Below, one piece after another: positions 25,569 through 49,518 of a stretch of DNA of 64,000 nucleotides. The translations under genes and the position numbers were made by a program. The DNA is from an uncultured Dehalococcoidia bacterium (GTDB lineage Bacteria; Chloroflexota; Dehalococcoidia; Lucifugimonadales; UBA1123). Where the stretch lies: positions 1 through 64,000 of the forward strand of contig OY282441.1 in NCBI GenBank assembly GCA_958296105.1. The letters run 5' to 3'. Each line of letters begins with the position of its first letter. Position 1 is the first letter of the stretch. Below the pieces are notes generated by a model that did not search any database, was not told the origin of the DNA, and worked only from the letters and a program-made list of their open reading frames with translations.

Positions 25569-25621
25569 GGCCCTGCGACCTTGACGCAGGGCATCCGTTA
25601 ATGATCGAGTGCGGTCAGAAG

Positions 25622-26734: not shown

Positions 26735-26759
26735 TGCTTCATCTCCTGATGCTTGTTGT

Positions 26760-32468: not shown

Positions 32469-32516
32469 TTGCCGTCCAGATACAGATACAATGAGGCGCG
32501 AGCGGAGTGACGACCC

Positions 32517-35500
32517 ATGATCCCCAAAGACTGCAAACGCCTCGCCGAAGTCGATTTCCCCATCGCCGAAGTCTCTAGGCACGCTGTCCGCGAAAAATCC
32601 ATACGACACGGACACCCCTCCACCCTCCATCTGTGGTGGGCGCGCCGCCCGCTGGCGTCCTCCCGCGCCGTCCTCATCGCCCTGCTCCTGCCCGACCCGT
32701 GCGATCCCAACTGCCCCGAAGCCTTCAGCCCGCGAGCGCGCCAAGCCTTGCTGTCCATGAAGTCCCGCCCCTCCTCGTGGGATCGGCAGCTCGAATCCCC
32801 CGATGGACTGCGCCGCGTCCTGCTGGAGTTCATCGCAAACTTCGCCAACTGGGACAACGCCGCCAGCGCCGAGTATATCGAGACCGGCAGGGCGCTGGTG
32901 AAAGCCGCCCACCCGCGCGATACCCCCTTGGTCGTCGACCCCTTCGCCGGCGGCGGCTCCATCCCCCTCGAAGCCCTGCGGCTCGGCTGCGAGGCGTTCG
33001 CAAGCGACCTCAACCCCGTCGCCTGCCTCATCCTCAAGGTCATGCTCGAAGACATCCCCCGACACGGCCCCGACCTTGCCCAAGAGCTGCGGCGCGTCGG
33101 CGCAGAGATCAAGACCAAAGCCGAGCGAGAGCTTGCCGATCTCTACCCAACAGACCCTGACGGCGCGACTCCCATCGCCTACCTCTGGGCGCGAACCGTG
33201 CGCTGCGAAGCCCCAAGCTGCGGCGCCGAGATTCCCCTGATGCGCTCGTTCTGGCTGTGCCGGAAAGCCAACCGCAAGATCGCCCTGCGCCACAGCGTGG
33301 CACGTCCCGATAACGCCCCGCCGCAGGTAGCCTTCAAGATAAAGATATTCAAGCCTGACTCCAACGACGAAGTACGTGGCGGCAGCGTGTCCCGCGCAAG
33401 GGCGACCTGCCTCTGCTGCGAAGCCGTACTCCCGCCCGCAAGAGTGCGCTCACAGCTTGCCGCCCAGCGCGGCGGCGCGGATGTGACTTTCGACGAGAAC
33501 GGCATCCGCACCGGCGGCGCGCGCATGACAGCCGTCGTAACCCTCCGTCCCAACGAGCGCGGACGCCACTACCGCCTGCCGACCGCCGCCGATTACGCCG
33601 CAGTCCATCGGGCGCAAGAGCGCGTGGCGCGGATTCTGGACGAATGGGAACGCGGCGGGAAGCAGGGTCTTTGCCCCGTGCCGGATGAGCCAGCGCCAAC
33701 AAAAGACACGCATCGCGCAGTCGGAAGCCAAATCCCGTTGTACGGTATAACGACCTTTGGCGATCTGTTCACTGCGCGGCAGAAATTGACTTTGATTGAA
33801 GGAGCACGTGAAATCTCTAAAGGTGGAGAGATACTTGGTTTATCCCTTGGAAAAGTGGCTCGGCATTGCAATGTGCTTAGCAAATGGCATAAGGGCAGTG
33901 AGACTGTTGCAGGCTCATTTGGTATGCAGACACTTCCGATGTCTTGGGACTTTCCTGAGATGTTCCCTTTTGTCCCATATGCGGGAGGCTTTGAAAATGC
34001 TATCACCGATGTTATAGGAGCATCTAGCACAGTTTCACATGTAGTAAAATCAGCAGGACAAATCCAGCCCGCCGACGCCACCGCTCATCCCCTTCCCGAC
34101 CAATCAGCGGGAGTCTGGTTCACCGACCCGCCCTATTATGACGCAATTCCATACGCCGACCTCTCGGATTTCTTCTTGGTCTGGCTCAAGCGCGCGTTCC
34201 CCGATTATCCGTTGTTGCATGACCCTTTCGGTGAGAACAATCGTCTGTCCCCCAAAACGGCTGAGATAGTGCAGTGTGAGAGGGTGAAGGATATAAACGG
34301 GACGTCCAAAGATAGAGAATTCTATGAGAGATCCATGGCTAGGGCTTTTGCCGAAGGTCGACGTGTGCTGAGCGAAGACGGCGTCGGCTCCGTCGTATTC
34401 GCCCACAAGACAACCGAAGGATGGGAAGCTCTGCTCTCCGGCATGATACGCGGCGGCTGGACTATCACCGGCTCTTGGCCAATCAAAACTGAGAGGGGCG
34501 CAAGACTCAATGCACGCGAGACAGCGCACCTCGCCACCAGCGTTCATCTGATCTGCCGCCCACGCCCCGAGGATGCGCCCGTCGGCGATTGGGCGGACGT
34601 GCTGCGCGAGCTGCCCGGGCGCGTCGGAGACTGGATGGAGCGACTTCAGCGCGAGGGCGTGCGCGGCGCGGATCTGGTGTTCGCCTGCGTCGGCCCCGCC
34701 CTGGAGATCTTCAGCCGCTACTCCCGCGTGGAGACGGTGGAAGGCGACGTCGTGGGCTTGCCCGAGTATCTCGAAAGAGTCTGGGAAGTCGTGGGACGAA
34801 CCGCCCTCGAAACCGTCTTAGGCACGGCGGAGGCGCGGGCGCGCAACGGCGCGCTTGGCGCGCTCGAGGAGGACGCCCGCCTGACCGCGCTCTTCCTCTG
34901 GACGATGCAAAGCACCGCCGAAGGGTTCCCCGCCGACAGCGGCGCAGACACCGCCGCCGCCCCACGCCAGATGTTCAGCCTGCCGTTCGACGTGGCGCGC
35001 CGGTTCGCCCAGCCGCTCGGCATCCACTTGGACAGCTGGGAGTCGCGGCGCATCATCCAGATCCGGAAGGGCGTGGTGCGTCTGATTCCCGTAGACGACC
35101 GCCGCCAGTGGCTCTTCGGAGAGTCCGGCGTAGACACCATAGCCGACTTGCTGGAGTCCAACGCCGGCTCCGACCATCAGCTGAACCTGTTCCCCGACAG
35201 CCCGCCCACCGCCCGCCGCCGTTCGAGCCGACGCCCCCAGCGCGCCCTGGATTCGGATACCGCCGCCGCGCCCCAGACGAGCCGAAGCCGAAATACGCAG
35301 GCAGTCGCCCCAGACGATCTTCACACCGTACCCGGCTGGACCACACTGGATCACGTTCATGCCGCCATGCTGCTGCAATCGTCCGGTAGATCGCAGTCAT
35401 TGAGAAACCTGTTGCAATCCCAGCAGGAGCGCGGCCCCGACTTCCTGCGCTTAGCCAACGCCCTCTCCGCCCTCTACCCCCGATCCAGCCAAGAAAAGCG

Positions 35501-35540
35501 CCTGCTGGATGCCATGCTCCTAGCCGCCCCAAGACAATGA
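32517..35540 (+). CDS. DUF1156 domain DNA methyltransferase (copy 2)
   Basis: A 1007-residue DNA methylase with the DUF1156 N-terminus (EKSIRHGHPSTLHLWWARRP), SAM motif DPFAGGGSIPLEALRLG near residue 140 with ASDLNPVA, and FTDPPYYDAIPYADLSDFF near 535. A cysteine-bearing segment CEAPSCGAEIPLMRS and a later CLCCEAVLPPA form a Zn-ribbon-like insert. Together with helicase copy 2 and the DUF499 ATPase downstream it completes the set known from defence-island surveys. Its C-terminal 150 residues are Arg/Ser-rich and variable. The start ATG at 32517 encodes MIPKDCKRLAEVDFP. Confidence 0.92.
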   Translation: MIPKDCKRLAEVDFPIAEVSRHAVREKSIRHGHPSTLHLWWARRPLASSRAVLIALLLPDPCDPNCPEAFSPRARQALLSMKSRPSSWDRQLESPDGLRRVLLEFIANFANWDNAASAEYIETGRALVKAAHPRDTPLVVDPFAGGGSIPLEALRLGCEAFASDLNPVACLILKVMLEDIPRHGPDLAQELRRVGAEIKTKAERELADLYPTDPDGATPIAYLWARTVRCEAPSCGAEIPLMRSFWLCRKANRKIALRHSVARPDNAPPQVAFKIKIFKPDSNDEVRGGSVSRARATCLCCEAVLPPARVRSQLAAQRGGADVTFDENGIRTGGARMTAVVTLRPNERGRHYRLPTAADYAAVHRAQERVARILDEWERGGKQGLCPVPDEPAPTKDTHRAVGSQIPLYGITTFGDLFTARQKLTLIEGAREISKGGEILGLSLGKVARHCNVLSKWHKGSETVAGSFGMQTLPMSWDFPEMFPFVPYAGGFENAITDVIGASSTVSHVVKSAGQIQPADATAHPLPDQSAGVWFTDPPYYDAIPYADLSDFFLVWLKRAFPDYPLLHDPFGENNRLSPKTAEIVQCERVKDINGTSKDREFYERSMARAFAEGRRVLSEDGVGSVVFAHKTTEGWEALLSGMIRGGWTITGSWPIKTERGARLNARETAHLATSVHLICRPRPEDAPVGDWADVLRELPGRVGDWMERLQREGVRGADLVFACVGPALEIFSRYSRVETVEGDVVGLPEYLERVWEVVGRTALETVLGTAEARARNGALGALEEDARLTALFLWTMQSTAEGFPADSGADTAAAPRQMFSLPFDVARRFAQPLGIHLDSWESRRIIQIRKGVVRLIPVDDRRQWLFGESGVDTIADLLESNAGSDHQLNLFPDSPPTARRRSSRRPQRALDSDTAAAPQTSRSRNTQAVAPDDLHTVPGWTTLDHVHAAMLLQSSGRSQSLRNLLQSQQERGPDFLRLANALSALYPRSSQEKRLLDAMLLAAPRQ

Positions 35541-35771
35541 CACCCCCAAGCCATCCCCCCTATACTATAATGGTAGAGCGCAAGGCAGAGCGTAATCCAT
35601 AATGAGCATCCGATTAATCCCCCCCTCCCATGATGGTAGAGCGTTAGGGTTAGCGTGGATTCCCCATGATCCACCAATTAATCCCCTCTCCCTTGAGGGG
35701 AGAGCGTTAGGGTGAGGGTGATTCCCCCCTCCCATGATGGTAGAGCGTGAGGCTGAACAGGAGTATCCGAA
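35541..35771. repeat. Intergenic hairpin repeats between methylase and ATPase
   Basis: No gene is seen. The region has three copies of a module ending in TGGTAGAGCG (near 35570, 35632 and 35737) plus one copy of the CCCTCTCCCTTGAGGGGAGA hairpin near 35685 followed by TTAGGGTGAGGGTGATTC. These are the same family as at 22.8 and 28.8 kb. Confidence 0.75.
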
Positions 35772-37103
35772 GTGAACGAGATCAGACTCAAAGACTACAG
35801 ATGCTTTCGCGACGAGCAGACCGCCCGCCTTGCCCCCCTGACCCTGCTCGTAGGCGAGAACAGCGCCGGAAAGACATCCTTCATGGCAATGATTCGCGTC
35901 CTATGGGACATTGGCTATGGATTCCGCAGCCCGGACTTCAAGGAAGACCCCTACGACCTCGGCAGCTTCGACGAAATCGCTCACTATCGGGGGGGCAGGG
36001 GCGGGCGCGCGAGTACGTTCGAGGCTGGATTCAGCGCCGAACTTGGGCGCGAGGTTAGCAGCTTCGAGTTCACTTTTGGAAGGAGTGGGACTGCACCCGT
36101 TCCTGTAAGGCGGCGTTTTTCTCTTGGAAGCGCTTGGATGGAAGAAACCTTTGCGCTCGACGAACCCTACTCGCTTCGAGTTGGAACCAGTCGGGGGTCT
36201 TGGGGGCTTGGGGATACAGGTGAATTTAGAGTTATATCCCACACTGTAGAGCGTACGATACTCCGCCCCTACCTTTTTCTGGCGCCAATGAGTTTACGAG
36301 AGGATGGAACGGGTTTTGCGCCGCTGGCAGACGCTCCACCCATTAGTTCACAAGACCTTGAAATGCTAGGTGATCTGGATCATTTCATCTGGTCGATTCG
36401 CCGACAGCGCCAGCGGCCATTCGCCAGCGCCCCCGTCCGCTCCAAGCCGCGCCGTACATACGACCCTTCCCGGCCTACACCGGACCCCGAAGGCGACTAC
36501 GTTCCCATGTATCTCGCCGACGTATCTTCCGGAGACGAACAGACGTGGACGGATCTAAAGGATGGACTCGAACGCTTTGGGAAAGCCGCCGGACTCTTCG
36601 ATGAAATCTCCTTCAGGCGTCTGGGAGGGAGAGCCGGCGATCCCTTCCAAGTGGAGGTCAGAAAATTCGGAGGCAGGCTGAAAGGCCCCATGCGAAATCT
36701 CATCGACGTGGGATACGGCGTCAGCCAGTCGCTGCCCCTGATAACGGAGCTGCTGCGCCCCGACGCGCCGGACATGTTCCTGCTCCAGCAGCCGGAAGTG
36801 CATCTCCACCCGATGGCGCAAGCCGCTCTAGGCAGCCTGTTCTGTCGGGTCGCAGGCACAGAAAGGCAGCTTGTGGTCGAGACTCACAGCGACCACCTGA
36901 TGGACAGGGTGCGCATGGACGTTCGGGACGGTGAAACGGATCTGAAGCCCGAAGACGTCTCGATCCTCTACTTCGAGCGCAATGACTTGGATGTTCGGAT
37001 TCACTCGCTCCGAATAGACGAAGATGGCGACATCCTAGACGCGCCCGATAGCTACCGCAGCTTCTTCATGGAAGAGACGATGAGGTCTCTATGGAGAGAC
37101 TAA
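35772..37103 (+). CDS. AAA (ABC/OLD-like) ATPase
   Basis: A 443-residue ATPase with Walker A GENSAGKTS near residue 30, a signature-like GYGVSQSLPLITELL near 318, Walker B MFLLQQPEVHLHP near 336, and an ETHSDHLMDRVRMDV switch region. There is no TOPRIM domain, unlike full OLD proteins. The start is GTG. Such ATPases act as sensors in several two-gene defence systems paired with a nuclease. The next gene, 20 bases on, encodes a PIN-type nuclease, so the two probably form one unit. Regulation is not visible. Confidence 0.88.
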   Translation: MNEIRLKDYRCFRDEQTARLAPLTLLVGENSAGKTSFMAMIRVLWDIGYGFRSPDFKEDPYDLGSFDEIAHYRGGRGGRASTFEAGFSAELGREVSSFEFTFGRSGTAPVPVRRRFSLGSAWMEETFALDEPYSLRVGTSRGSWGLGDTGEFRVISHTVERTILRPYLFLAPMSLREDGTGFAPLADAPPISSQDLEMLGDLDHFIWSIRRQRQRPFASAPVRSKPRRTYDPSRPTPDPEGDYVPMYLADVSSGDEQTWTDLKDGLERFGKAAGLFDEISFRRLGGRAGDPFQVEVRKFGGRLKGPMRNLIDVGYGVSQSLPLITELLRPDAPDMFLLQQPEVHLHPMAQAALGSLFCRVAGTERQLVVETHSDHLMDRVRMDVRDGETDLKPEDVSILYFERNDLDVRIHSLRIDEDGDILDAPDSYRSFFMEETMRSLWRD

Positions 37104-37123
37104 TCTATTCGAGGAGTTGAGGC

Positions 37124-37609
37124 ATGTGCGCAATCGTGGACGCAAACGTCGCCCATGAGGTGTTTGGACCCAGTCCGCAGCCGGCAGGTAAGGAGTTCTT
37201 AGAATGGATCCGCAAAGGGAGCGGTCGGTTGGTGGTTGGGGGCAAGCTGCACCGTGAGCTTATTTTGAGTTCGGAAGGCTTCAGGAATTGGGCGCTTGAA
37301 GATAAGCGCGCTAACAAGATGCGGATGCGGATGCGCATTGAGAAGGCGAGTGAAGTAGATGCAAGAACCAAATATATCGAGGGTCAGGGAAGGTGCGAGT
37401 CGAACGATGAGCATATCATCGCCTTGGCGCAGATCAGCGGATCCCGCCTTTTGTACTCCAACGACAGAGCTCTGCGACACGATTTCACGAACAAACGTCT
37501 GATTGACAGTCCGCGCGGAAAGCTCTATTCGACACCCAAGAACAAGAAATCCGAGAACGATATGAGAAGACTTCTCAACAGAAAAGACCTGTGCGGAGCA
37601 AAGCAGTGA
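37124..37609 (+). CDS. PIN-domain-like protein paired with AAA ATPase
   Basis: A 161-residue protein. CAIVDANVAHEVF places the first PIN aspartate at residue 6. ESNDEHIIALAQISG and LLYSNDRALRHDF supply the later acidic residues. The Lys/Arg-rich end (SENDMRRLLNRKDL) may contact nucleic acid. As the partner of the upstream ATPase it is the likely nuclease effector, probably acting on RNA as most PIN proteins do. Its stop overlaps the DUF433 start (GTGA). Confidence 0.8.
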   Translation: MCAIVDANVAHEVFGPSPQPAGKEFLEWIRKGSGRLVVGGKLHRELILSSEGFRNWALEDKRANKMRMRMRIEKASEVDARTKYIEGQGRCESNDEHIIALAQISGSRLLYSNDRALRHDFTNKRLIDSPRGKLYSTPKNKKSENDMRRLLNRKDLCGAKQ

Positions 37610-37821
37610 ACGCCGACCCTCTGAATCGAATAACCGCTCGCCCCGACGTCTTTGGCGGGAAGCCGATCATTCGTGACATGCGCGTATCTGTGGAGTTGAT
37701 ACTGAGCCTGTTGACGCAGGGAGTCACGCCGGATGATATTATTGACGACTACCCCGACCTCGAATTGGATGACATTCGCGCCTGCACCGCTTACGCCCAC
37801 GCTGTCATCGCCGGAGACTAG
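37606..37821 (+). CDS. DUF433 antitoxin-like protein
   Basis: A 71-residue protein beginning at GTG overlapping the PIN stop. RITARPDVFGGKPIIRDMRV and GVTPDDIIDDYPDLELDDI are the hallmark of DUF433, the winged-helix antitoxin usually followed by a DUF5615 PIN-like toxin. That toxin survives only as a relic just downstream, so this antitoxin may now be an orphan or may serve the upstream PIN protein. Confidence 0.88.
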   Translation: MNADPLNRITARPDVFGGKPIIRDMRVSVELILSLLTQGVTPDDIIDDYPDLELDDIRACTAYAHAVIAGD

Positions 37822-37924
37822 CTGGCTGCCGTGTCGATTGCAAGCTCGTAAGATTTCTCGTGCGATAGTAACCATACGCGGCGGGCGAATCCGTATATCA
37901 CATCCCCTTGATACTCCGAAATAA
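37822..37924 (+). pseudogene. Relic C-terminus of a DUF5615-type toxin
   Basis: Immediately after DUF433, one frame reads RAIVTIRGGRIRISHPL, which resembles the end of DUF5615 toxins (an AIVxxxxGRIRIRxLP pattern). The rest of the toxin is absent. I infer an internal deletion that removed the toxin and left its last 20 or so codons. Confidence 0.5.
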
Positions 37925-37942
37925 ACAGATGGAGTCTTTCCG

Positions 37943-40738
37943 ATGCAGCCTTGGTACAGAGTGGTCACGCCCCGCGAGGAAGTCCGAGAAGGACGCTCGT
38001 TCAGCCCCGACGAGTTCGCCATCGCGCTGGAACAGGTGGTCAACCGAACCGCCCCGCCCGACTACAGCGACCCCAGTCAGTTCTTCTCCCGCACCTACGT
38101 CACCCGCGCCTTGGAGGAGCATACCGGCATGGCCCTTCGCCGTCTGGCGGGCAGAACCGGCAACACCGCCCCCGTTCTCACCCTGATTACCCAGTTCGGC
38201 GGGGGAAAGACACACACCCTGACCGCCCTCTACCATCTCGCCAGAGCCGGCAGAGACGCCGCCAGACTCCCCGGAGTCGCAGAGCTGCTGATGAGTTCCA
38301 GCATGTCCGAGGCTCCCCGCGCGCGCGTCGGCGTCTTCGTAGGCAACGCCTGGGACCCCTCTGAGGGGCGGGAGACGCCTTGGATCGACCTCGCCCGCCA
38401 GATCGCCGGCGATAGGGGAGTGGAGGCGCTTGGCCCCACCGCCCAGACCACCCCGCCCGGCACCGAGGCGCTGTCGAGAGCGTTCGCCGCCGCCGACGCC
38501 CCCGTTCTGCTGCTGTTCGACGAGGCGCTGAACTTCATCAACCGTCACCGCGGCATGGCAGACAGCTTCCACGCCTTCATCCAGAACCTCACCGTCGCCG
38601 TCACCGGCACCACCCGCGCCGCCGCCGTGATAAGCCTTCCCCGCAGTCAGGTAGAGATGACCGAATGGGATCAGGAGTGGCAGGAGCGCATCACTAAGGT
38701 CGTCGGGAGAGTCGCCCGCGACCTGATCGCAAACGACGAGTCCGACATCAGCGAGGTGGTGCGGCGCAGACTGTTCGAGGACTTGGGCGGCGAGCGCGTC
38801 CGTCAGAACATCTCGCGCGCGTATGCGGATTGGTGCCTCGACAGAAGCGAGCGGCTGCCCTCCGAGTGGACGGCAGTCGACACCGCCACCAGCGACAGGC
38901 GCGCGCGCGATTTCCTCCGCAGGCGTTTCGAGGCGTGCTACCCGTTCCACCCCGCCACCCTCTCCGTGTTCCAGCGCAAGTGGCGCGCCCTGCCCCAGTT
39001 CCAGCAGACGCGCGGCGCGCTGGCGATGCTGGCGCAGTGGATATCATGGGCAGCCCGCGAGCAGTTCGCGCAGGCGCGCGCCGAGCCGCTCATTACACTC
39101 GGATCCGCCCCGCTTCACGTTCCCGAATTCCGCGCCTCGCTTCTGGGCCAGCTCGGAGAGTCCAGGCTGGACGTCGCCATAGACGCCGACATCGCCGGAG
39201 AGACCGCCCGCGCCAGAGCGCTGGACGCCGACACCAAGGGCGCGCTCCGCGACATCCACCGCAGACTCGGCGCAGCCATACTGTTCGAGTCCTCCGGCGG
39301 ACAGGTGGACAAAGTAGCCCATCTGCCCGAGCTGCGCTTCGCCCTCGGCGAGACAGACGTCGAGACCACCACCATAGACAACACCGCGCTCGCGCTTGAG
39401 AGGACGGGCTTCTTCATTCGCAAAGTCGGCGCAGACGGCTACCGCATCCACCATCAGGCAACACTGAGGAAAGTCGTAAGCGACCGTCGAGCGTCTCTCG
39501 ACTACCGCAGCGAAGTCGCCCCCGCGATTCGCAGACTCGTAGAGAGTGAGTTCAGGGACGGACCATCCGTGCCGACCGTCTTCTTCCCCGAAGACAGCGC
39601 CGCAATTCCCGATTCGCCCAGACTTGCGCTGATCGTCGCCGACCCTGATGAAGAGTGGCAGCCGGGAGACGAGACGAGCAAGCGCATCGCCCACTGGATC
39701 AGGCATCGCGGATCCTCCCCCAGACTCTACCCCGCCGCCATAGTCTGGTCTGCCAGGAGGCCTGGGCGTGAGCTGCGCGCGCGCGTCGAAGAGTGGCTCG
39801 CATGGCAGCGCGTGGATCAAGAGTTGAAGCAGGGCATACTTGGAGCGGAGATCGAGCAGTCGGAGCGCGACGAGGTGAGCGCGAGAATCCGGGACTCCCA
39901 AGACTTGGCAAAGGACGAGGTTTGGGCTGCGTACCGTTACGTGATCATATCCGACGCCGGCTCCGATGACAGGCTCAGGACGATCGACTTGGGCGCGGGC
40001 CACTCCAGCGGCAGCTCGACCCTGTGCGGACGCATAATCGGCGCGTTGAAGTCCGAGGCGTTGCTGAACGAGTCGATCGGCGCCGGCTACGTCGACCGCC
40101 ACTGGCCGCCCGCCTTCGAGAATTCCGGCGCGTGGCCTCTAACCGGCTTGCGCAAGAGCTTTCTCGACGGTTCGCTGACGCGACTGCTCGACCCGGACGC
40201 GGCTCTCCGTCAGAAGATTGCCGAGTTCGTGGAAAGAGGAGATTTCGGCATCGCGTCCGGCGACAGGGGAGACGGCCGATACGAAAGAGTCTGGTACCAC
40301 GAGCCTATTGGCATGGAAGAGGTGGCGTTCGAGCCGAACGTCTTTCTGTTGAAGAAGACAAAGGCACAGGAGCTTCGGACGCCGTCGACCGCGTCCGATA
40401 TTCAGCCGCCTGTCATCGTCCCCGATCCCGCCCCTGCTGATCCTGACGACCGCGAAATCGTCCCCCTCGATACCGTCCCTGATGACATCGAACCGCTTGG
40501 ACATACTCAGACTGATCGGAAGACCACGCTGCGGATTACAGGCACCGTCCCCCCCGAAGTCTGGAACCGGATTGGAACTCGGATCCTGCCCAAACTCCGC
40601 TCCGGCGCGGACCTCACCGTGGGCATAGACCTGTCCGTCGACATAGAACCAGACCGCTCGCATGGCCTCCAGCTGGATCTGCTGCAAGCCTTGGATGCAC
40701 TCGGTCTCCAAGAGCGGGTGTCTGTGGATGCGTCATAA
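37943..40738 (+). CDS. DUF499 domain ATPase
   Basis: A 931-residue protein of the COG1483/DUF499 family. N-terminal features are REGRSFSPDEFAIALEQV, a Walker A in ITQFGGGKTHTLTALYHLA near residue 88, and Walker B PVLLLFDEALNFINRH near 193. A long helical region and a C-terminal winged or beta domain (TLRITGTVPPEVWNRIGTRI) follow. The family is known next to DUF1156 methylases and SNF2 helicases in predicted defence systems; both lie 2-9 kb upstream on the same strand. The AAA/PIN/DUF433 genes are inserted between. Its exact role is unknown. Confidence 0.9.
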   Translation: MQPWYRVVTPREEVREGRSFSPDEFAIALEQVVNRTAPPDYSDPSQFFSRTYVTRALEEHTGMALRRLAGRTGNTAPVLTLITQFGGGKTHTLTALYHLARAGRDAARLPGVAELLMSSSMSEAPRARVGVFVGNAWDPSEGRETPWIDLARQIAGDRGVEALGPTAQTTPPGTEALSRAFAAADAPVLLLFDEALNFINRHRGMADSFHAFIQNLTVAVTGTTRAAAVISLPRSQVEMTEWDQEWQERITKVVGRVARDLIANDESDISEVVRRRLFEDLGGERVRQNISRAYADWCLDRSERLPSEWTAVDTATSDRRARDFLRRRFEACYPFHPATLSVFQRKWRALPQFQQTRGALAMLAQWISWAAREQFAQARAEPLITLGSAPLHVPEFRASLLGQLGESRLDVAIDADIAGETARARALDADTKGALRDIHRRLGAAILFESSGGQVDKVAHLPELRFALGETDVETTTIDNTALALERTGFFIRKVGADGYRIHHQATLRKVVSDRRASLDYRSEVAPAIRRLVESEFRDGPSVPTVFFPEDSAAIPDSPRLALIVADPDEEWQPGDETSKRIAHWIRHRGSSPRLYPAAIVWSARRPGRELRARVEEWLAWQRVDQELKQGILGAEIEQSERDEVSARIRDSQDLAKDEVWAAYRYVIISDAGSDDRLRTIDLGAGHSSGSSTLCGRIIGALKSEALLNESIGAGYVDRHWPPAFENSGAWPLTGLRKSFLDGSLTRLLDPDAALRQKIAEFVERGDFGIASGDRGDGRYERVWYHEPIGMEEVAFEPNVFLLKKTKAQELRTPSTASDIQPPVIVPDPAPADPDDREIVPLDTVPDDIEPLGHTQTDRKTTLRITGTVPPEVWNRIGTRILPKLRSGADLTVGIDLSVDIEPDRSHGLQLDLLQALDALGLQERVSVDAS

Positions 40739-40808: not shown

Positions 40809-41591
40809 GTGGGTCACGAGAGAGTAGGCGCTCTTCCACACTCCAAGCGCTGGCGCGATGTCGTTGCTCAGTTGGGTGCATCGTCGGGATCGCAGCAAGA
40901 AGTGGCAGAGCTGGCAACTGCCACACTTGGGAATGTTCGAGTCCAGTTCAGAAAACTTCACACGGATGATGGCGTAGTAGCCGCGTTCCAGTTCTTGTTG
41001 GCATTGGCCAAGAGCGCCTCATCCGGCAGTCTCCCTGCTGACTCATTCGCCCCTAGCATTGATCTTGACGAACGTCCAACAACTCTGAAGCTCGTAAGCG
41101 AGCTTCGATCATGGGTTGACGACCAGAACGGTTCGAGGGAGTACGCTGATCTTGCGGCAAAGGCATCGGCTGATGCCATATCCATCTGGTCCACCCAACA
41201 GAAAGTGCAGCCGACGCTCTTCGACTCCGACATAGACTCGAAAGATATTTGGCGGCGAGCGGACAGCGGCGCGGGATTCTGCGAGGTGTCCAGACTGTTC
41301 TTCGCTAAATTCACAGAGAGGTACCTCAATTACTTTCTGGAGCGCGAGGCGTCAGCCGCCATGGCCAGTGTCGTCGAACGGGACCAGCTTGCTTCACGAC
41401 TAAGGGACCACATTGACGATGTATCTAGGTTCGCTTTTGAAACATCCCGGATAACGCAGTCATTCGCAGCAGGATGGTTCAACAGTCACGCCCGCGACAG
41501 AGTCCCGTCGAAAGATGAGTCCGAGGGGTTCTTGTTCATAGCCTTCGGCAAGATGCGGGAGGAGCTGATGCGGGAGGTGCCCAAGCCATGA
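40809..41591 (+). CDS. Unknown partner of QueC-like/nuclease fusion; predicted Met-Gly N-terminus
   Basis: A 260-residue protein of no named family. GTG at 40809 has AGGAA eight bases upstream, so the product would start Met-Gly-His; after methionine removal glycine would be N-terminal. The protein is mostly helical (DVVAQLGASSGSQQEVAELA, later EREASAAMASVVERDQLAS). The stop overlaps the QueC-like gene start by ATGA. In Qat and type IV CBASS, QueC-like enzymes are reported to attach a deazaguanine to the N-terminal glycine of a partner protein. That this protein is such a substrate is inference from its position and N-terminus. The base composition is less GC-rich than that of the helicase/methylase genes. 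Confidence 0.7.
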   Translation: MGHERVGALPHSKRWRDVVAQLGASSGSQQEVAELATATLGNVRVQFRKLHTDDGVVAAFQFLLALAKSASSGSLPADSFAPSIDLDERPTTLKLVSELRSWVDDQNGSREYADLAAKASADAISIWSTQQKVQPTLFDSDIDSKDIWRRADSGAGFCEVSRLFFAKFTERYLNYFLEREASAAMASVVERDQLASRLRDHIDDVSRFAFETSRITQSFAAGWFNSHARDRVPSKDESEGFLFIAFGKMREELMREVPKP

Positions 41592-43462
41592 GCACTGATG
41601 CTCCCGTCATGGTTCTATGCAACGAAGCCGCCATTCCAAGAGAATGCTCCATAAAGCCGCGAAAGAACATTGTCCTAGACTACTTACAGCGAGGCGAGGA
41701 GCCTGCCAACGTTTGGATCGGACTTCCAGATTTTGTCCGTGATGTGTATCACTTGTCAGACCGGGTACTCGACTTGCTAGAGATCGCGGCATATGTCTAC
41801 TGCGCAGATCGAATGATCAGCCGAGGCTCAACAAGGGCCGTCGAGTACCAAGCTTGGGATAGATCATTCCATTTCGTTGTCAAGGTGCGTGATTACGATT
41901 TCTGGAGTCGGAGTGACGTCTCGACCTGCTTGGCGCAAGCTCTGAAGTTCATGACAGGCGACCGCCACTACGAGTTCTCGTTTCAACCGGGCCACTCAAC
42001 GCCGAAGACCAATCTATTCGATGATGAGCAATTCCGACTCGATGACTCTTCGAACTTGTCGGTGGCGCTGTTCTCGGGTGGCTTGGATTCTCTAGCGGGA
42101 ATCACTCAGCGGCTTGAAGATACCAGAGACCAGCTTTGCCTTGTCAGCCATCAGCCCCAGCCTGGCACTGCGCGAACTCAGAACCGCTTAGTCACCACCC
42201 TAAAGAATCTATACCCTAACAGGATTTTCCACTACAAGTTCCAAAGCAACCTGACGCAGATTGCCAAACGAGTCGAGGAGACCCAACGGTCCAGATCATT
42301 CTTGTACACCAGCATTGCTTATGCTATCGGTCAAGCCTTTGGGCAAGACAGCTTCTTCGTGTTTGAGAATGGAATCACAAGCATCAATTTCTCCCGTAGA
42401 CAAGATCTCTCCAATGCCAGGGCGAGTCGTACTACACACCCGCAGACAATCTACCATCTGCGACAGTTCTTTTCGCTGCTCCTTGAACGTCCCTTCCGGA
42501 TCGACCTTCCATTCTTGTGGAAGACCAAGACCGACATCATGGAGATGCTCAAGAACAGTCCACATGCAAATCTGATTCCTAGTTCAGTCTCGTGTAGTAA
42601 GACATCCCGGAATCTCGGTCAGTCGACACACTGCGGGGGCTGCTCTCAATGTATCGACCGTCGGTTCGCGGCTTACGGAGCAAAGGCGGATGATGTAGAT
42701 GAGGCCGGTATCTATGCCAAAGACATTATTGCCAAAAGCATTGTAGAGCGAGAAACACAGACAACAGCAGTGGACTATGTGCGACAAGCCCAGAAATTTG
42801 GCACTTGGAACATTGACCACTTTTTCACTGAGCTAACAACCGAGTTGTCTGACATCGTCGACTACCTTCCAGACGATTCGAGTGAGACTGAGCGTATCGA
42901 ACAGATTTGGACCATGTGTCGCAGGCATGGGGATCAGGTGTCGCTTGCCATGAAGCGGATGCGGGAGGTACATGACGATCTCTACTCTGCTGTCGAAAAG
43001 AGCTCGCTACTCGGTCTGATTTCCGACCGGGAATACCTTAAGGACCCAGTGGACCGGCTGATAGAGACGCTGTGCAAGTTGCTTCCTCCTACAGTTGGGA
43101 TGATGTTTAGCGCCAACAAACCTAAGGATGAATCGGACCTGAACCTCAAGATAAGTGCCCTGCTGGACTCACATCGCATTGAGTTGGAACGAGAGCATCC
43201 GGCAGTACCATTCGCTGGAGGTCACGCCGTGCCTGATCACGGAAGCGAAGACTGTGCCGTTTTTGTCGAGTCCAAGTACATCCGCGGTGGAACGTCGCCA
43301 AGTAGGGCATCCGAAGGCATGGCAGCGGACTTGACCAAATATCCTCAGGACACGCACATCCTTTTTGTGGTTTACGACCCAAAGCGGTCAATCAAGGACG
43401 ATCGACGCTTCAAGAACGACTTTGAGTCGCGGGGGCGTTGCACAGTGATCATAATTCGATGA
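41588..43462 (+). CDS. QueC-like PP-loop enzyme fused to PD-(D/E)XK-like domain
   Basis: A 624-residue protein. Residues 1-150 are unassigned. The PP-loop SVALFSGGLDSLAGI is near residue 160. The QueC zinc site is seen as one Cys in SVSCSKTS and three in STHCGGCSQCIDRR (336-356). The C-terminal 100 residues read SEDCAVFVESKYIRGG, then HILFVVYDP: a D...E-x-K arrangement typical of restriction-type nucleases. Housekeeping QueC is about 230 residues, so this is a defence-type fusion. The expected chemistry is amidation or adenylation of a carboxy-deazaguanine. It is coupled to the Met-Gly partner upstream and followed by a 570-bp gap. Confidence 0.82.
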   Translation: MSTDAPVMVLCNEAAIPRECSIKPRKNIVLDYLQRGEEPANVWIGLPDFVRDVYHLSDRVLDLLEIAAYVYCADRMISRGSTRAVEYQAWDRSFHFVVKVRDYDFWSRSDVSTCLAQALKFMTGDRHYEFSFQPGHSTPKTNLFDDEQFRLDDSSNLSVALFSGGLDSLAGITQRLEDTRDQLCLVSHQPQPGTARTQNRLVTTLKNLYPNRIFHYKFQSNLTQIAKRVEETQRSRSFLYTSIAYAIGQAFGQDSFFVFENGITSINFSRRQDLSNARASRTTHPQTIYHLRQFFSLLLERPFRIDLPFLWKTKTDIMEMLKNSPHANLIPSSVSCSKTSRNLGQSTHCGGCSQCIDRRFAAYGAKADDVDEAGIYAKDIIAKSIVERETQTTAVDYVRQAQKFGTWNIDHFFTELTTELSDIVDYLPDDSSETERIEQIWTMCRRHGDQVSLAMKRMREVHDDLYSAVEKSSLLGLISDREYLKDPVDRLIETLCKLLPPTVGMMFSANKPKDESDLNLKISALLDSHRIELEREHPAVPFAGGHAVPDHGSEDCAVFVESKYIRGGTSPSRASEGMAADLTKYPQDTHILFVVYDPKRSIKDDRRFKNDFESRGRCTVIIIR

Positions 43463-44032: not shown

Positions 44033-44974
44033 ATGCGGAAGACTCTGGGAGTTCTCAGTATGCTAGACAGGTTCGATGGACCTGAGGGACGGCCTCGCTT
44101 GGTCGAGGCGCTTCGGACCCAGAATATCATTGGTGACGACGCTGCCTTGGCAGGGCTGATCGCCGATTCTGCTAAAGTCGAGGGGTTCAAGCCGTGTTCC
44201 GTCCTCATCGAAGATTCGGCAGCGGACAACGACATCCTCTTCATACTGGCAGGCGTCGTTTCGATCCGAGTTCTAGGACGCGAAGTTGCGGTCAGGGCGT
44301 CAGGTCAGCACGTAGGCGAGCTGGCGCTCATAGACCCTGGACAGCGTCGCTCCGCGTCCGCGGTGGCAGACGGTGAGGTGGTCATAGCCCGCCTGTCCGA
44401 GGAGGCGTTCACCGAGTTGGCCGAATCCCATCCCCGGCTGTGGCGCAACCTCGCCCGCGAGCTAGCTCACCGCCTCCGACAGCGAAACAGGTTCGTCGCG
44501 TCGGTGAATCCTCGCCCCGTCCTGTTCGTGGGCTGTTCGGCAGAGTCGCTTCCCATAGCCCGCGCTATCCAGTCGGCGCTCGAACACGATCGGATAGTCG
44601 TCAATCTATGGACCGATGGTTTGTTCGTGGCGTCGAGCTTCCCAATCGAATCCCTAGAGCAGTTGTTGCCAACCGCCGACTTCGCCGCGCTCGTGCTGTC
44701 GCCGGATGATACAGTAATCAGCCGAGACGCGACCAATCCAGCGCCGAGGGACAACATCATATTCGAGCTGGGGCTGTTCATGGGAGCTCTGAGTCACTCC
44801 CGCACGTTCCTGATCCACCCGCGTGACGTCGATGTCAAGATACCGACAGACCTCGCTGGCATCACGCCGCTGACCTATGCGATAGGGACAGAGGAAGAGG
44901 ATGGACTTTCCGTCACGATGGCATCTGCGTGCAATCAGATGAGAACCGTCATACTAACTACTGGACCGCGTTGA
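44033..44974 (+). CDS. pycTIR: Pycsar effector: cyclic-nucleotide-binding domain plus TIR-like domain
   Basis: A 313-residue protein. Residues 30-150 form a cyclic-nucleotide-binding domain with the phosphate-binding cassette GELALIDPGQRRSASAVA near 95-112. From 160 a TIR-like nucleotide-binding domain begins with PVLFVGCSAESLPIARAI, followed by YxD-like strands and RDNIIFELGLFMGAL, whose Glu is the expected NADase residue. In Pycsar, cCMP or cUMP binding activates NAD+ destruction and the cell dies or stops growing. The cyclase gene follows 22 bases later. Confidence 0.9.
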   Translation: MRKTLGVLSMLDRFDGPEGRPRLVEALRTQNIIGDDAALAGLIADSAKVEGFKPCSVLIEDSAADNDILFILAGVVSIRVLGREVAVRASGQHVGELALIDPGQRRSASAVADGEVVIARLSEEAFTELAESHPRLWRNLARELAHRLRQRNRFVASVNPRPVLFVGCSAESLPIARAIQSALEHDRIVVNLWTDGLFVASSFPIESLEQLLPTADFAALVLSPDDTVISRDATNPAPRDNIIFELGLFMGALSHSRTFLIHPRDVDVKIPTDLAGITPLTYAIGTEEEDGLSVTMASACNQMRTVILTTGPR

Positions 44975-44996
44975 CAATGATCGGGGGAGATAGACG

Positions 44997-45689
44997 ATGG
45001 CACTCGGAGACAATCTCAACTCGGAAGTGAGGAAGATACTTCAAGAGGAATGGACCACGCAGAATCGCCGGGGTGCGCCCAAACTGGATGATCTGAAGCT
45101 CGGCAACGATGCCGTCGAGCTGGAGGGAACGGTTCTGTATGCCGACTTGGACGACTCGACCAAGCTCGTTGACACTGAGGAACCTGCGTTCGCGGCAGAG
45201 GTGTACAAGACCTATCTGGTATGCGCCGCAAGGATAATCCGATCTGAGAACGGGACGATTACCGCGTATGACGGCGACCGCATCATGGCGGTGTACACCG
45301 GCGGCAAGAAAGACGACAGAGCCGTCCGCACCGCGCTCAAGATCAACTATGCCGTGCAGAAGATCATCAATCCCGCTATCAGAGAGGAGTATCCGCGTTC
45401 CAGCTACTCGGTGAAGCAGGTAGTGGGCATTGACACGAGCGATCTGTTCGTGGCGCGCACAGGTATTCGGGGGTTCAACGAACTCGTCTGGGTTGGGCGC
45501 GCAGCCAACTATGCGGCCAAGCTGTCCTCACGCTCCGGACCAGCTTCGCAGATCACCGCCGAGGTGTATGATCGCTTTGAGCAAAGTTTGAAGGTCAATA
45601 GAAACGGCTCGAACGCGTGGATTCGGACGACTGCCCCAGAGATTGGGAGTGGGGAGATATACACATCGTCGTCATGGTTGGAAGTGTAG
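44997..45689 (+). CDS. pycC: Pycsar pyrimidine cyclase (class III cyclase fold)
   Basis: A 230-residue cyclase. TVLYADLDDSTKLVD near residue 46 and AYDGDRIMAVYTGG near 92 provide the two metal-binding aspartates. GFNELVWVGRAANYAAKLS near 158 is the usual Asn/Arg region. As a stand-alone cyclase next to a cyclic-nucleotide-binding TIR effector it fits PycC, which makes cCMP or cUMP after phage attack. Which pyrimidine is used cannot be read from the sequence. The ribosome site GGGGGAG precedes ATG. Confidence 0.88.
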   Translation: MALGDNLNSEVRKILQEEWTTQNRRGAPKLDDLKLGNDAVELEGTVLYADLDDSTKLVDTEEPAFAAEVYKTYLVCAARIIRSENGTITAYDGDRIMAVYTGGKKDDRAVRTALKINYAVQKIINPAIREEYPRSSYSVKQVVGIDTSDLFVARTGIRGFNELVWVGRAANYAAKLSSRSGPASQITAEVYDRFEQSLKVNRNGSNAWIRTTAPEIGSGEIYTSSSWLEV

Positions 45690-45768
45690 ATACGGTGTGG
45701 GCGAGGCTACTGAACCGGGCGGCGAGTTGCTCAGCGCCGATCTACCCCTTTGACGGCATCTTGGACAG

Positions 45769-46695
45769 ATGCAGAAACCCATGACTCAAGATAGCGCATT
45801 TCACATTCTAGCTCTGGATGGAGGGGGTACGAGTGGAGTTTACTCAGCTCAGATCCTCGCTTGCATCGAACAGTCGAACGGCGCGCCTGTAGGGGAGTGC
45901 TTCGATCTGATCGCCGGCACCAGCACAGGCTCGATCATAGCGGGGGCTGCCGCTGCGGGAATTCCCATGCCCGAGATAGTCAAGCTCTTCGAGAAGGAGT
46001 CGCCACGCATCTTCCAGAGGAGACGGCTGGGCTCGTTTCATGTCCGAAGCAAATACTCGATTCGGCCCCTTGAGAAAGTGGTCCGAAGACACGTCCCCGA
46101 CCTGACCCTAGGGGAAATCTCAAAGCCTCTGATGATTATGGGATCCGACATATCCACCGGCGGGGTGCATGTTTTTAAGTCTCGCTACCTGAAGGACCTC
46201 GGACAGCCCTATGTCAGAGACTCAGATGTCGCCTTGAGCGATGCCATCTTGGCGTCGTGCGCCGCTCCCGCGTATTTTGACCCTGTATCAGTCGGTGATT
46301 TCCTTCTAGCAGATGGCGGCCTGTGGGCCAACAATCCGTCGATCATGGCGTTGACGGAGGCAGTTGCCAAGTTCGGGCGGGCGGTTGAACAGGTACGTAT
46401 CCTGTCGATCGGTACCGGCCGCTCCGTCAATCTCTATTCTAAGAACAGACTGTGGGGCCTCATCACCGGCTGGGGCCGCCAGAAGTTGGTCTCGTATGTC
46501 TTCAGACTGCAATCCGACGCTTCAGCGAATATGGCCAAGCTGCTGCTCGCAGACCGGTACCTGCGGATCGACCCTGAGATCGAGGCTTGGGATTTGGACG
46601 ACACCAAGCATCTCGACACTCTCAAGGCTCTGGCTACTAGAGATTTCGCCCTTCACAGTGAGGCGATTATGAAGAACCTAAAGAAACCGCAGTGA
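45769..46695 (+). CDS. capV: CBASS effector CapV, patatin-like phospholipase
   Basis: A 308-residue patatin. The oxyanion motif GGGTSGVYS is near residue 17, the nucleophile Ser in AGTSTGSII near 49, and the catalytic Asp in LADGGLWANNPS near 183. CapV enzymes are activated by a cyclic dinucleotide and degrade the inner membrane. It stands directly before a CD-NTase and a Cap2, the standard type II order. ATG at 45769 or 45781 may start it. An 85-bp gap with a palindrome separates it from the CD-NTase. Confidence 0.92.
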   Translation: MQKPMTQDSAFHILALDGGGTSGVYSAQILACIEQSNGAPVGECFDLIAGTSTGSIIAGAAAAGIPMPEIVKLFEKESPRIFQRRRLGSFHVRSKYSIRPLEKVVRRHVPDLTLGEISKPLMIMGSDISTGGVHVFKSRYLKDLGQPYVRDSDVALSDAILASCAAPAYFDPVSVGDFLLADGGLWANNPSIMALTEAVAKFGRAVEQVRILSIGTGRSVNLYSKNRLWGLITGWGRQKLVSYVFRLQSDASANMAKLLLADRYLRIDPEIEAWDLDDTKHLDTLKALATRDFALHSEAIMKNLKKPQ

Positions 46696-46712
46696 CAAAA
46701 CACTCGCATGGC

Positions 46713-46727
46713 ACAGGCCTGTACAAT
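46713..46727 (+). promoter_or_regulatory. Palindrome overlapping a possible -10 before CD-NTase
   Basis: ACAGGCCTGT (46713-46722) is a perfect 10-bp palindrome joined to TACAAT (46722-46727). No -35 is found at normal spacing. It could be an internal promoter/operator or chance. Confidence 0.25.
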
Positions 46728-46780
46728 ACTTAGACAGGCTGGCACTCCCGAAGCAAATAGAACATCCACAGGAGATAAAG

Positions 46781-47806
46781 ATGACCAAGAACAATCAGGA
46801 CTTCCAAGACTTTCTCAGGGATGAAGTCAACCTTAACAAAACCCGGCTCGACAGGCTGAACAGGAGCGTGCGAGCTGTGAGCAGCCATCTTGAGGATCAC
46901 CTGACCGGCTATCAGAAGACGGAGCGGCAGGGTTCATACGCCCTGGACACTCTCATCAAGCCTGTCGCCGACAACGACGAGTACGATGCCGACATCCAGA
47001 TCGTGATGAAACCCAACCGCCGATGGCAGGCTAAAGACTACCCCAACGAGATCTTCAGGACTCTGAAACAGAACCATAACTACGCCGACAAGCTCCGGCT
47101 AAAGACTCGATGTGTCACCATCGACTACGCAGGCGACTTTCACCTAGACGTGGTTCCCCGATTGACCTCGCGCAGCAGACACTACGTGTGCAATCGAATT
47201 GATAACAGACGCGAGGTAACGGACGGGACCGGATATCGAGACTGGTTCAACGAGCAGAATCGGATAACCGACGGCAATCTCAAGCGAGTCGTGAGAATCC
47301 TCAAGTACCTGCGGGATCACAAGAACAACTACACAGCCAAGTCGATCCTGCTCACCACGTTGGCCGGCAGCGCCATCATGCAGTCCCATAAAGGGACTGA
47401 AGCTGTCAGAACTGTGGCAGACACCTTGGTGACGGTGCTGACGAGGATGGACGATTACCTGCAGCAAAACCCCTATATGCCTGAGATTAGGAATCCAGCG
47501 CTGCCAGACGAGAACTTCAACCGACACTGGGACCAGAGGAAATACGCCAACTTCAGGAATAGAGTTCACTCCCATGCGCTGACGGCAAGGAAAGCCAAGG
47601 CGGAATCGTCGAGTGAAAGGGCAGTCGAGATTTGGCAGGAGCTGTTCGGCGAGAGCTTCGGCAGAGGTTCTTCCGGTGGGAGCGATGATCGAGGCGGAAG
47701 CGGCAGAGGTTCACCGAACCAGCGGAGTAACAACACGGTCCGTGGAGCGGCCTCTGGCTCAGGCATCTCGGCAGCCCGACGCAACGAGGCACAGGGGTTC
47801 GGATAG
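46781..47806 (+). CDS. CBASS CD-NTase, system 2
   Basis: A 341-residue SMODS-type synthase. The catalytic motif QGSYALDTLIKPVADNDEYD is followed by ADIQIVM, giving GS...DxD near residue 50-70. The third acid is in YAGDFHLDVVP near 121. It differs strongly from the CD-NTase of system 1. The tail from 295 is Gly/Ser/Arg-rich and ends AQGFG, a flexible C-terminus suited to conjugation by Cap2. AGGAG precedes ATG. Paired with a phospholipase effector, it probably makes a cyclic dinucleotide, but the product is not shown by sequence. Confidence 0.92.
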   Translation: MTKNNQDFQDFLRDEVNLNKTRLDRLNRSVRAVSSHLEDHLTGYQKTERQGSYALDTLIKPVADNDEYDADIQIVMKPNRRWQAKDYPNEIFRTLKQNHNYADKLRLKTRCVTIDYAGDFHLDVVPRLTSRSRHYVCNRIDNRREVTDGTGYRDWFNEQNRITDGNLKRVVRILKYLRDHKNNYTAKSILLTTLAGSAIMQSHKGTEAVRTVADTLVTVLTRMDDYLQQNPYMPEIRNPALPDENFNRHWDQRKYANFRNRVHSHALTARKAKAESSSERAVEIWQELFGESFGRGSSGGSDDRGGSGRGSPNQRSNNTVRGAASGSGISAARRNEAQGFG

Positions 47807-47808
47807 AG

Positions 47809-49352
47809 ATGATGACGGACGACCACTTCCACTTGGATTCCCTAGAGAAATTCATCGGGGAGTTGGCGGACGCTGGATTCCAGCTAGTCCCTGAATCCAG
47901 TTATCAACGATGGACAGGGAAGATTCACCCGGCCTTTGAGCCGCTGACCAACGCGACGACAATGGACATCGTTGTTGCTCCGGGGTGGCCATTCCAACCC
48001 CCGGCGCTGTTCGTGCAGGGTCTCAATACCAACCATTCAACCCTAGATGGTCTGGTGTGCATGTGGCGCGAGGGAGATTTCAGCCACGAATGGACCACTG
48101 CGCACGGTCTGTTCTCGAGGATCGAAGAGTGGTGTGCGGATGCGAAAAAGGGGTGGGAGGATGATCGGCTGGATCAGGACGCTTTCCTGAATTTTAGGGA
48201 GAATAGTCCGCTTGCCGCTACTTTCGACCTTTCGTCGCTAGGCATTATTGAAGGTAGTTGGGGTGAATGTCACGGCGTATTTGGTCAGAGGCCGCCACGT
48301 GTGGACATTGCCCCAGAGCGCAGACGGTCGGCAGACCAGCTGCGGTGTCTTTGGTTTCATGTTGGGTCATTGAGTGCGCCACCGCCTCGTAAACTCTCCG
48401 AGGTCGTCGCCTGCCTGCCGCGATTGCAGCGTAGACAGCTGCGGCGGGCATTGGCAGACCGGCGCAAGCCCAATTTCCTCACTGCCAGCGGTGGAGTGGA
48501 CCTCATCATCTTTTGCTGGCAGCGTCACGGCCGGACCGACCTCTTAGTGATGGCATGTAGAGGGACGGAAGAAGAGACGGAAGCAGTCGCCATGCAAGCA
48601 GCGCCAAGAGACGAACAGAGCCTCATTCTGCGCGCAGGGCCTGACGCAACGGCGCTGCGCACGCGCAGAGCCACTGTGTTCGGGGCCGGAGCGCTTGGTG
48701 GGTACACCTCCACGTTACTGGCTGAAAGCGGAGTCGGGTTCGTGGACATTGTCGACCCCGATGTACTGCTGGTAACGTGGTGAGGCACGTCTCCGGTCAC
48801 AGCATGGTGGGCGTTCCAAAGGTGCAGGCGGTCCAGTCCATAATCGGAGACCACGCTCCTTGGGCTGAGGTTTCAGCGTTCATGGAGGCGCCCCGTACCC
48901 CAAGAGAAATACAAGAGCGCATACATCGCGCCGACATCGTTATAGACACGACAGGAAACGAGGCTCTAGCTCACTCGCTGGCCATGGTGTCACAGGACAT
49001 TGGGAAGCGACTGGTCTCCGGAGCGCTCTATCGAGGCGGTTTCATCGCTCGCGTGCGCCGGCAGGCGTTAGCAGGAGATACACCGATTCACCAGCGAGAC
49101 GACCTGACACGCTATCCCGTCATACCCGCCGGACACGATAGCGAGGATTTCGCTTCTCCCCAGTTGGGTTGCTCAGCGCCGGTCAATAACGCTCCCCCCT
49201 CAGCGGTGTCGGCCTGCGCTTCCCTGATATCGCAAGTCGCAATAGACGTGCTGACCGGTCGATTTGAGTTTGCTGACGAGGTCATCGAGGTCTACCGAGC
49301 TATTCCTGAACCGCCGTTCCACCAGATTGGAAAGGTTGGCCGAGAGCGGTAA
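47809..49352 (+). pseudogene. cap2: CBASS Cap2 (E1-E2 fusion), split by a one-base frameshift
   Basis: The first frame (47809-48783) carries the E2-like part with the cysteine in LDGLVCMWREG near residue 83, then the start of the E1 domain (ATVFGAGALGGYTSTLLAESG, then VDIVDPDVLLVTW and stop). The second frame (48777-49352) resumes with VRHVSGHSMVG and contains the E1 cysteine (QLGCSAPVNNAPPSA). Homology should read DVLL-x-GN-x-VRH across the joint, which needs one extra base near 48768-48772. So it is either an inactivating deletion, programmed slippage or a sequence error. No cap3 gene follows, unlike in system 1. Confidence 0.88.
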
Positions 49353-49518
49353 GTTACATTCCAGCAGCCTGAGCGGCCCTCAGGCCGATCCCGGACATCT
49401 GCGTGGGCAGCTGATCTCCCTCATTGTGAGCGCCGCCTGCATTTCGCCCGCGGTGAGATCACTTGATCGTTGAGGAGATGCCATTACCGGAGGGAGTTCC
49501 ATCTTCTGTAAACGTTGG

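What the first reader, a model, noticed from the sequence alone, without database searches (positions are those of the whole stretch)
40809..43462. QueC-like enzyme fused to a nuclease-like domain, with a Met-Gly partner: candidate new defence unit
Seen: two coupled genes (ATGA). The second has a PP-loop (SGGLDS), a QueC-type four-cysteine site and a C-terminal D...ESK arrangement of restriction-type nucleases. The first is a 260-residue unknown whose best start gives Met-Gly. Known: in Qat and type IV CBASS, QueC-like enzymes modify a partner at an N-terminal glycine with a deazaguanine. Inference: this unit uses the same chemistry but carries its nuclease on the QueC-like protein. I know of no described system with this two-gene architecture. 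It sits between a DUF499 ATPase and a Pycsar system.
Basis: partly seen in the sequence, partly recalled or inferred. Interest (0 to 1): 0.88.

Follow-up and report, generated by a model that had tools for sequence, protein, structure and literature searches.

The report
Two-gene Qat relative carrying a nuclease
A bacterial defence-island gene pair is a distant, stripped-down relative of the Qat anti-phage system in which the QueC-like enzyme carries its own DNA-cutting domain and its small partner always starts Met-Gly-His; it matters because its host seems unable to make the deazaguanine building block that a related enzyme attaches to its partner, so the chemistry may be something new.

Summary
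The pair (40809-41591 and 41588-43462) is a divergent QatB-QatC unit. Residues 5-480 of the second protein match solved QatC along its full length (Z 30.3, 397 residues). Residues ~484-624 are a DpnII/MboI-type restriction-nuclease domain (Pfam over cut-off for the window, match in 11 of 11 relatives, PD...ExK invariant). The first protein has no sequence relative outside its own family, but its predicted fold matches QatB (Z 11.1, 188 residues; next unrelated 5.5).

Relatives in many phyla always pair the two genes. All 26 readable partners start Met-Gly-His, and none of the loci has QatA or QatD nearby. The QatC core forms a clade apart from canonical QatC (99/95). The C-terminal module is exchanged: restriction domain, another nuclease-like domain, or unassigned domains.

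The residues that bind 7-carboxy-7-deazaguanine in Cap9 and QueC are Ser/Thr here, as in QatC. The window's genome has no recognisable QueD, QueE or canonical QueC; QueE is also missing from its three congeners.

Best reading: the enzyme conjugates an unidentified carboxylate to the partner's N-terminal glycine, controlling the fused nuclease. Architecture well supported; mechanism inferred. New variant of a known kind.

The parts
40809..41591 (+). QatB-like partner gene, 260 aa, GTG start, N-terminus MGHERVGALPHSKRW
   Evidence: ORF and start; family alignment; AlphaFold2 model matches QatB 9y01_A, Z 11.1, 188 aligned
40809..40853 (+). N-terminal motif MGHxRxGxLPxxxxW with invariant Gly2 and His3 (Gly2 codon 40812-40814); low model confidence for residues 1-12, so probably flexible
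   Evidence: 26 of 26 readable partners start MGH; most conserved 15-residue window of the protein; pLDDT under 50 at 1-12
41588..43462 (+). QatC-like enzyme fused to a restriction-type nuclease, 624 aa, overlapping the partner gene by 4 nt (ATGA)
41588..43027 (+). QatC part, residues 1-480: N-terminal extension, QueC-like PP-loop core and C-terminal helical extension
   Evidence: VIA-align to QatC 9y01_B: Z 30.3, 397 residues, model 5-480; PADLOC QatC E 1.5e-50
42074..42091 (+). PP-loop SGGLDS (residues 163-168), ATP pyrophosphate binding
   Evidence: S, G, G, D, S invariant across 36 QatC-type sequences
42425..42433 (+). S280-R281-T282, equivalent to QatC T278-R-T280, which replace the Tyr/Asp of QueC and Cap9
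   Evidence: alignment; role of T278/T280 from PMC13279940
42593..42652 (+). Zinc site C336, C349, C352, C355
   Evidence: invariant in 36 sequences
43037..43459 (+). C-terminal DpnII/MboI-type restriction endonuclease domain, residues 484-624
   Evidence: PF18742 E 3e-11, all 11 members match;
43232..43276 (+). Predicted nuclease active site P549-D550 ... E561-x-K563
   Evidence: invariant in 11 of 11 members

Best explanation
This is a two-gene relative of the QatB-QatC core of the Qat anti-phage system. The QatB-like partner loses its initiator Met and presents an N-terminal glycine (Gly-His-x-Arg...) to the active site of the QatC-like enzyme. The enzyme uses ATP (PP-loop) to activate a carboxylate and join it to that glycine. 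In this host the carboxylate is probably not host-made 7-carboxy-7-deazaguanine. The modification, or a phage-induced change in it, licenses the C-terminal DpnII/MboI-type nuclease to cut DNA and stop infection. Shown here by computation: QatC homology, QatB-like fold, invariant Gly2, nuclease family and motif, conserved pairing, absence of QatA/QatD, no QueD/QueE found in the genome. Inferred: that a conjugation takes place, that it controls the nuclease, that the target is phage DNA, and the anti-phage role itself.
For: QatC match over the full length. QatC hallmark residues checked are kept: D62, D74, R79, W90, R92, SGGxDS, R234/R236, E260/G262, S/T-R-T, H284-P285, T313-K314, four Cys, Y376. 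Partner fold = QatB, Z 11.1, twice the next unrelated hit, over nearly the whole domain. Met-Gly-His in 26 of 26 partners, and in most it is the only possible start. Nuclease: PF18742 in 11 of 11, PD...ExK invariant. Overlapping genes at all 23 junctions read. No QatA/QatD in 27 loci, with positive controls ringing. Setting: window full of Hma, CBASS and Pycsar genes. Literature: QatB and QatC alone suffice against some phages, and QatB G2 and QatC catalytic residues are essential (PMC13279940). A natural QatC-TatD fusion (L025) shows a nuclease joined to the same end of QatC in a canonical Qat locus.
Against: Profile-profile comparison of the partner with QatB finds nothing (probability 0.5%), so the QatB link rests on a predicted model, and helical bundles give middling Z by chance. 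No PDB sequence matches the nuclease domain, and no fold search of it alone was run. Relatives whose C-terminal module is not a recognised nuclease (L016, L062-L069, L076-L078) show the nuclease is not needed for whatever the core does. No experiment on this clade is known to me.
Confidence: 0.6

Rival explanations
1. One reading: the enzyme attaches 7-carboxy-7-deazaguanine (CDG) to Gly2 of the partner, exactly as Cap9 does in type IV CBASS.
For: Same PP-loop/zinc fold; Cap9 does this chemistry (PMC13279940); several other hosts of the family have QueE-like hits of good coverage and QueC.
Against: CDG-contact Tyr/Asp are Ser/Thr; QueD, QueE and canonical QueC not found in G000; QueE not found in three congeners although convincing QueE hits occur elsewhere in the order; G104, 99% complete, has no QueE and no canonical QueC.
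Confidence: 0.2
2. The C-terminal module is a DNA-recognition or sensing part rather than the effector: the restriction fold and the other modules bring QatBC to phage DNA, and the modified partner is the effector, as may be the case in canonical QatBC, which defends without QatA or QatD.
For: The module is exchanged for domains without recognised nuclease families, some of which look like helix-turn-helix by eye; QatBC alone defends against some phages in canonical Qat (PMC13279940).
Against: PD...ExK catalytic residues are invariant in 11 of 11, which binding alone would not need; L017 carries a different nuclease-like domain; canonical Qat also carries a nuclease, fused in L025.
Confidence: 0.25
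3. A toxin-antitoxin-like pair: the nuclease is toxic and the modified partner restrains it until infection disturbs the modification.
For: Strict gene overlap, two-gene unit, single catalytic effector.
Against: QatB in the canonical system is required for defence rather than known as a restrainer (PMC13279940); the module is not always a recognised nuclease.
Confidence: 0.12
4. Not a defence system: a DNA-repair or housekeeping modification pair that happens to lie in an island.
For: None direct; function has not been tested by experiment.
Against: Sparse presence, roughly 0.5-2.5% of genomes per phylum sampled; absent from congeners searched with the enzyme; defence-island setting.
Confidence: 0.05

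Closest known systems
Qat (qatABCD), QatB-QatC core
   Same: QatC core and both extensions (Z 30.3), QatB-like partner fold (Z 11.1), gene order B-C with overlap, N-terminal Met-Gly, QatC hallmark residues checked
   Different: No QatA or QatD; N-terminal motif MGHxR instead of MGTS; short N-terminal tail; extra C-terminal module (here a restriction nuclease); first Thr of T-R-T is Ser in the REase-type branch; below the NCBIfam QatC cut-off (192.7 vs 280 bits)
Type IV CBASS Cap9 (with CD-NTase and Cap10)
   Same: QueC-type PP-loop enzyme with a partner that has an N-terminal glycine
   Different: Partner is not a CD-NTase; CDG-binding Tyr/Asp absent; enzyme far larger
QatC-TatD (QatC-QatD) fusion on Bradyrhizobium plasmids (L025)
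   Same: Nuclease joined to the C-terminus of a QatC
   Different: TatD rather than PD-(D/E)XK nuclease; canonical QatA and QatB present
DpnII/MboI-type restriction endonucleases (PF18742)
   Same: Domain family, PD...ExK site
   Different: Fused to QatC; no methyltransferase or specificity partner in the two-gene unit

Membership tests
Qat (qatABCD) | QatC enzyme with N- and C-terminal extensions around a QueC core | tested here: met
Qat (qatABCD) | QatC equivalog score (NF041925, cut-off 280 bits) | tested here: not met
   192.7 bits; relatives 164.6-186.1
Qat (qatABCD) | QatB partner by sequence | tested here: not met
   No QatB HMM hit; hhalign probability 0.5%
Qat (qatABCD) | QatB partner by fold | tested here: met
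   9y01_A Z 11.1, 188 aligned, predicted model pLDDT 76
Qat (qatABCD) | N-terminal glycine on the partner | tested here: met
   26 of 26, as MGH rather than MGTS (canonical MGT)
Qat (qatABCD) | QatA KAP NTPase | tested here: not met
   No hit in 27 loci, controls positive
Qat (qatABCD) | QatD TatD nuclease | tested here: not met
   No hit in 27 loci, controls positive
Type IV CBASS (Cap9) | CD-NTase partner with MGGS N-terminus | tested here: not met
   Partner has no CD-NTase family hit and a QatB-like helical fold
Type IV CBASS (Cap9) | Tyr/Asp that bind CDG | tested here: not met
   S280 and T282 at the equivalent positions
Canonical QueC (queuosine synthesis) | Equivalog score TIGR00364 and YPDC substrate motif | tested here: not met
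   19.1 bits vs cut-off 150.3; position reads SRT
DpnII/MboI REase (PF18742) | Family score over cut-off and PD-(D/E)XK residues | tested here: met
   43.5 bits vs 27, 11 of 11 members match; motif
DpnII/MboI REase (PF18742) | Restriction fold confirmed against solved structures | tested here: inconclusive
   No PDB sequence hit; whole-protein fold search was filled by the PP-loop domain
Qat / anti-phage defence | Phage protection | not testable with these tools
   Needs plaque assays

The most novel reading that the evidence does not exclude
A widespread, unnamed branch of QatBC defence in which the enzyme carries an exchangeable effector or DNA-binding module and conjugates something other than deazaguanine to the partner's N-terminal glycine, so that hosts without the queuosine pathway can run it: a new kind of N-terminal protein conjugation.
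Probability: 0.4. Interest if true: 0.82.

Novelty: new variant of a known kind. Interest (0 to 1): 0.63.

Why it matters
What reaction QatC catalyses is stated as an open question in the 2026 structural paper (PMC13279940). This branch gives a direct handle on it: a natural QatBC unit in a genome where no QueD, QueE or canonical QueC is found. A plaque assay in E. coli queD or queE deletions would say whether CDG is the substrate. The branch is also a minimal natural form of the system, with its probable effector on the enzyme itself, which would make a link between partner modification and nuclease activity testable with two purified proteins. No paper describing it was found in the held library.

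Tried and rejected
Relatives in IMG/VR viral contigs and in phage records: none. Sequence-only link of the partner to QatB: failed by HMM and hhalign; Foldseek alone also gave only chance hits, and VIA-align found QatB. PDB sequence relatives of the partner or of the nuclease domain: none. The idea that the upstream DUF499 gene is a third component replacing QatA: rejected as a constant partner; most other loci have no such gene beside the unit by eye, and in the window it matches HmaC of a Hma-like cluster. A DUF499-like gene does precede L018 (by eye), so an occasional link is not excluded. Pfam names for the non-REase C-terminal modules: none. Promoter/terminator scan: nothing above chance. 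Papers on QatC-nuclease fusions: none found in the library.

Full report
OBSERVATION. The two ORFs are present as described and overlap by ATGA. The partner's GTG start at 40809 is directly preceded by an in-frame stop, so Met-Gly is the earliest possible N-terminus. The enzyme has SGGLDS at 163-168, cysteines 336/349/352/355, and at its C-terminus PF18742 (REase DpnII-MboI), 39.4 bits against a cut-off of 27.

WHAT THE ENZYME IS. PADLOC QatC matches at E 1.5e-50 and solved QatC chains at 7e-22. NCBIfam's QatC equivalog scores 192.7 bits, below its cut-off of 280, so the protein would not be named QatC. An AlphaFold2 model on ten sequences (pLDDT 79) matches QatC 9y01_B with Z 30.3 over 397 residues, spanning model residues 5-480, that is both QatC extensions as well as the core. 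The nuclease domain begins after this, at about residue 484. In an alignment of 36 QatC-type proteins the hallmark residues checked are kept with rare exceptions, including QatC's threonine pair as S/T-R-T; the Tyr and Asp that hold CDG in QueC and Cap9 are absent (roles from PMC13279940).

WHAT THE PARTNER IS. It has no Pfam, PADLOC (beyond a chance-level 0.02), NCBIfam or PDB sequence relative, and a profile comparison with six canonical QatB proteins fails. Its model (pLDDT 76, ten helices, residues 1-12 of low confidence) matches QatB 9y01_A with Z 11.1 over 188 residues and 9y02_A with 10.8; the next, unrelated chain is at 5.5. The published QatB has ten helices and a disordered N-terminal tail (PMC13279940). 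I take it as a divergent QatB. The caveat is that helical bundles can reach middling Z by chance.

RELATIVES. A scan driven by the enzyme, not the partner, gave ten loci from Armatimonadota, Bipolaricaulota, Planctomycetota, Bacteroidota, Latescibacterota, Verrucomicrobiota, Ignavibacteriota, Rhodothermota and an unassigned bacterium. Each whose start can be read has a partner gene upstream that begins MGHER. A Leptospira noguchii plasmid carries the complete pair, annotated as hypothetical proteins. Searching whole genomes with the partner profile added more divergent pairs (read). In all, 26 of 26 readable partners start Met-Gly-His, and in most no other in-frame start is possible upstream. 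Across 25 aligned partners the first 15 residues are the most conserved window; Gly2 and His3 are invariant. Starts in the later set were sought with a profile that contains this motif, so the enzyme-driven set is the unbiased one. Matches occur in 0.5-2.5% of genomes sampled per phylum (some are fragments), and none in phage or viral collections.

A CLADE WITH EXCHANGEABLE C-TERMINAL MODULES. On a maximum-likelihood tree of the core, these enzymes form one side of a branch against canonical QatC (99/95). Starred branches force at least two changes of the REase label, and the best tree needs five. Modules seen: the REase (11 members), a different nuclease-like domain in L017 (PADLOC PDC-M36A), a short module in four members from Bacteroidota and Ignavibacteriota, a longer one in seven members, and others in L015, L018, L038 and L069. 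Pfam names none of the non-REase modules; some look like helix-turn-helix domains by eye, which is untested. The REase has P-D ... E-x-K invariant in 11 of 11 and Pfam agrees in 11 of 11. No QatA or QatD homologue lies in any of the 27 loci, while the same queries ring in two canonical loci. A Bradyrhizobium QatC is fused to TatD, so joining a nuclease to this end of QatC has a parallel.

THE DEAZAGUANINE QUESTION. Cap9 joins CDG to its partner's Gly2; QatC's reaction is unresolved (PMC13279940). CDG needs QueD and QueE (PMC13329287). The window's genome (one contig, 97% complete) has no PF01242 match, no canonical QueC and only partial, generic radical-SAM matches to QueE. Its three congeners have no QueE match, while convincing QueE matches occur elsewhere in the order. 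G104, 99% complete and carrying the REase-type pair, has a PF01242 protein but no QueE and no canonical QueC. Other hosts do have these genes. The simplest reading is that the system does not depend on host-made CDG. Import of a precursor, a phage-supplied pathway or an unrecognised route are not excluded.

MECHANISM. Proposed: Met removal exposes Gly2; QatC-like ATP-dependent activation of an unidentified carboxylate; conjugation to Gly2; and control of the fused nuclease by the state of the partner. The glycine, active site, pairing and nuclease motif are shown by sequence. The conjugation is inferred from Cap9 and from the essential G2 of QatB. Nuclease control and DNA target are inference. 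Anti-phage function is inferred from homology and from the setting: Hma, two CBASS sets, Pycsar.

NOVELTY. It is a new variant of Qat: core shared, QatA/QatD missing, motif changed, probable effector built in. I would not file it as qatABCD, since two defining genes and the sequence cut-offs are not met. It most likely works like QatBC.

Noticed in passing
window 2342-10497, 23805-28286, 29037-40738, 44033-49353: Dense defence island: Hma (HmaB, HmaA), a CBASS set (E1-E2, CD-NTase, SAVED-PDDEXK effector), a second Hma-like cluster (helicase, methyltransferase, AAA, PIN, DUF499/HmaC), Pycsar (TIR effector, cyclase), and a second CBASS (patatin, CD-NTase, E1-E2), close to tRNA-Ile at 49516-49592.
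   Followed up: partly
window 47809-49353: The E1-E2 gene of the second CBASS stops at 48783 (324 aa; its best profile has 523 positions) and its apparent remainder continues in another frame downstream: frameshift or sequencing error.
   Followed up: no
L025:3381-5510 (Bradyrhizobium ottawaense plasmid NZ_CP150124.1): Natural QatC-TatD fusion of 709 aa annotated only as QatC: QatC and QatD in one chain.
   Followed up: partly
L018:5573-7147: A DUF499-like gene (by eye) lies just upstream of the unit here as well as in the window; both genes of the unit in L018 appear frameshifted.
   Followed up: no
L038, L064, L065, L068, L069: Serine-recombinase-like genes lie near the unit (by eye), suggesting it travels on integrating elements.
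   Followed up: no
L010, L011, L014: AbiE-like nucleotidyltransferase toxin-antitoxin genes lie just downstream of the unit (by eye).
   Followed up: no
L004/L044 (G096) and L005 (G028): Degraded relatives in the same order as the window, keeping the restriction domain and parts of the enzyme.
   Followed up: partly
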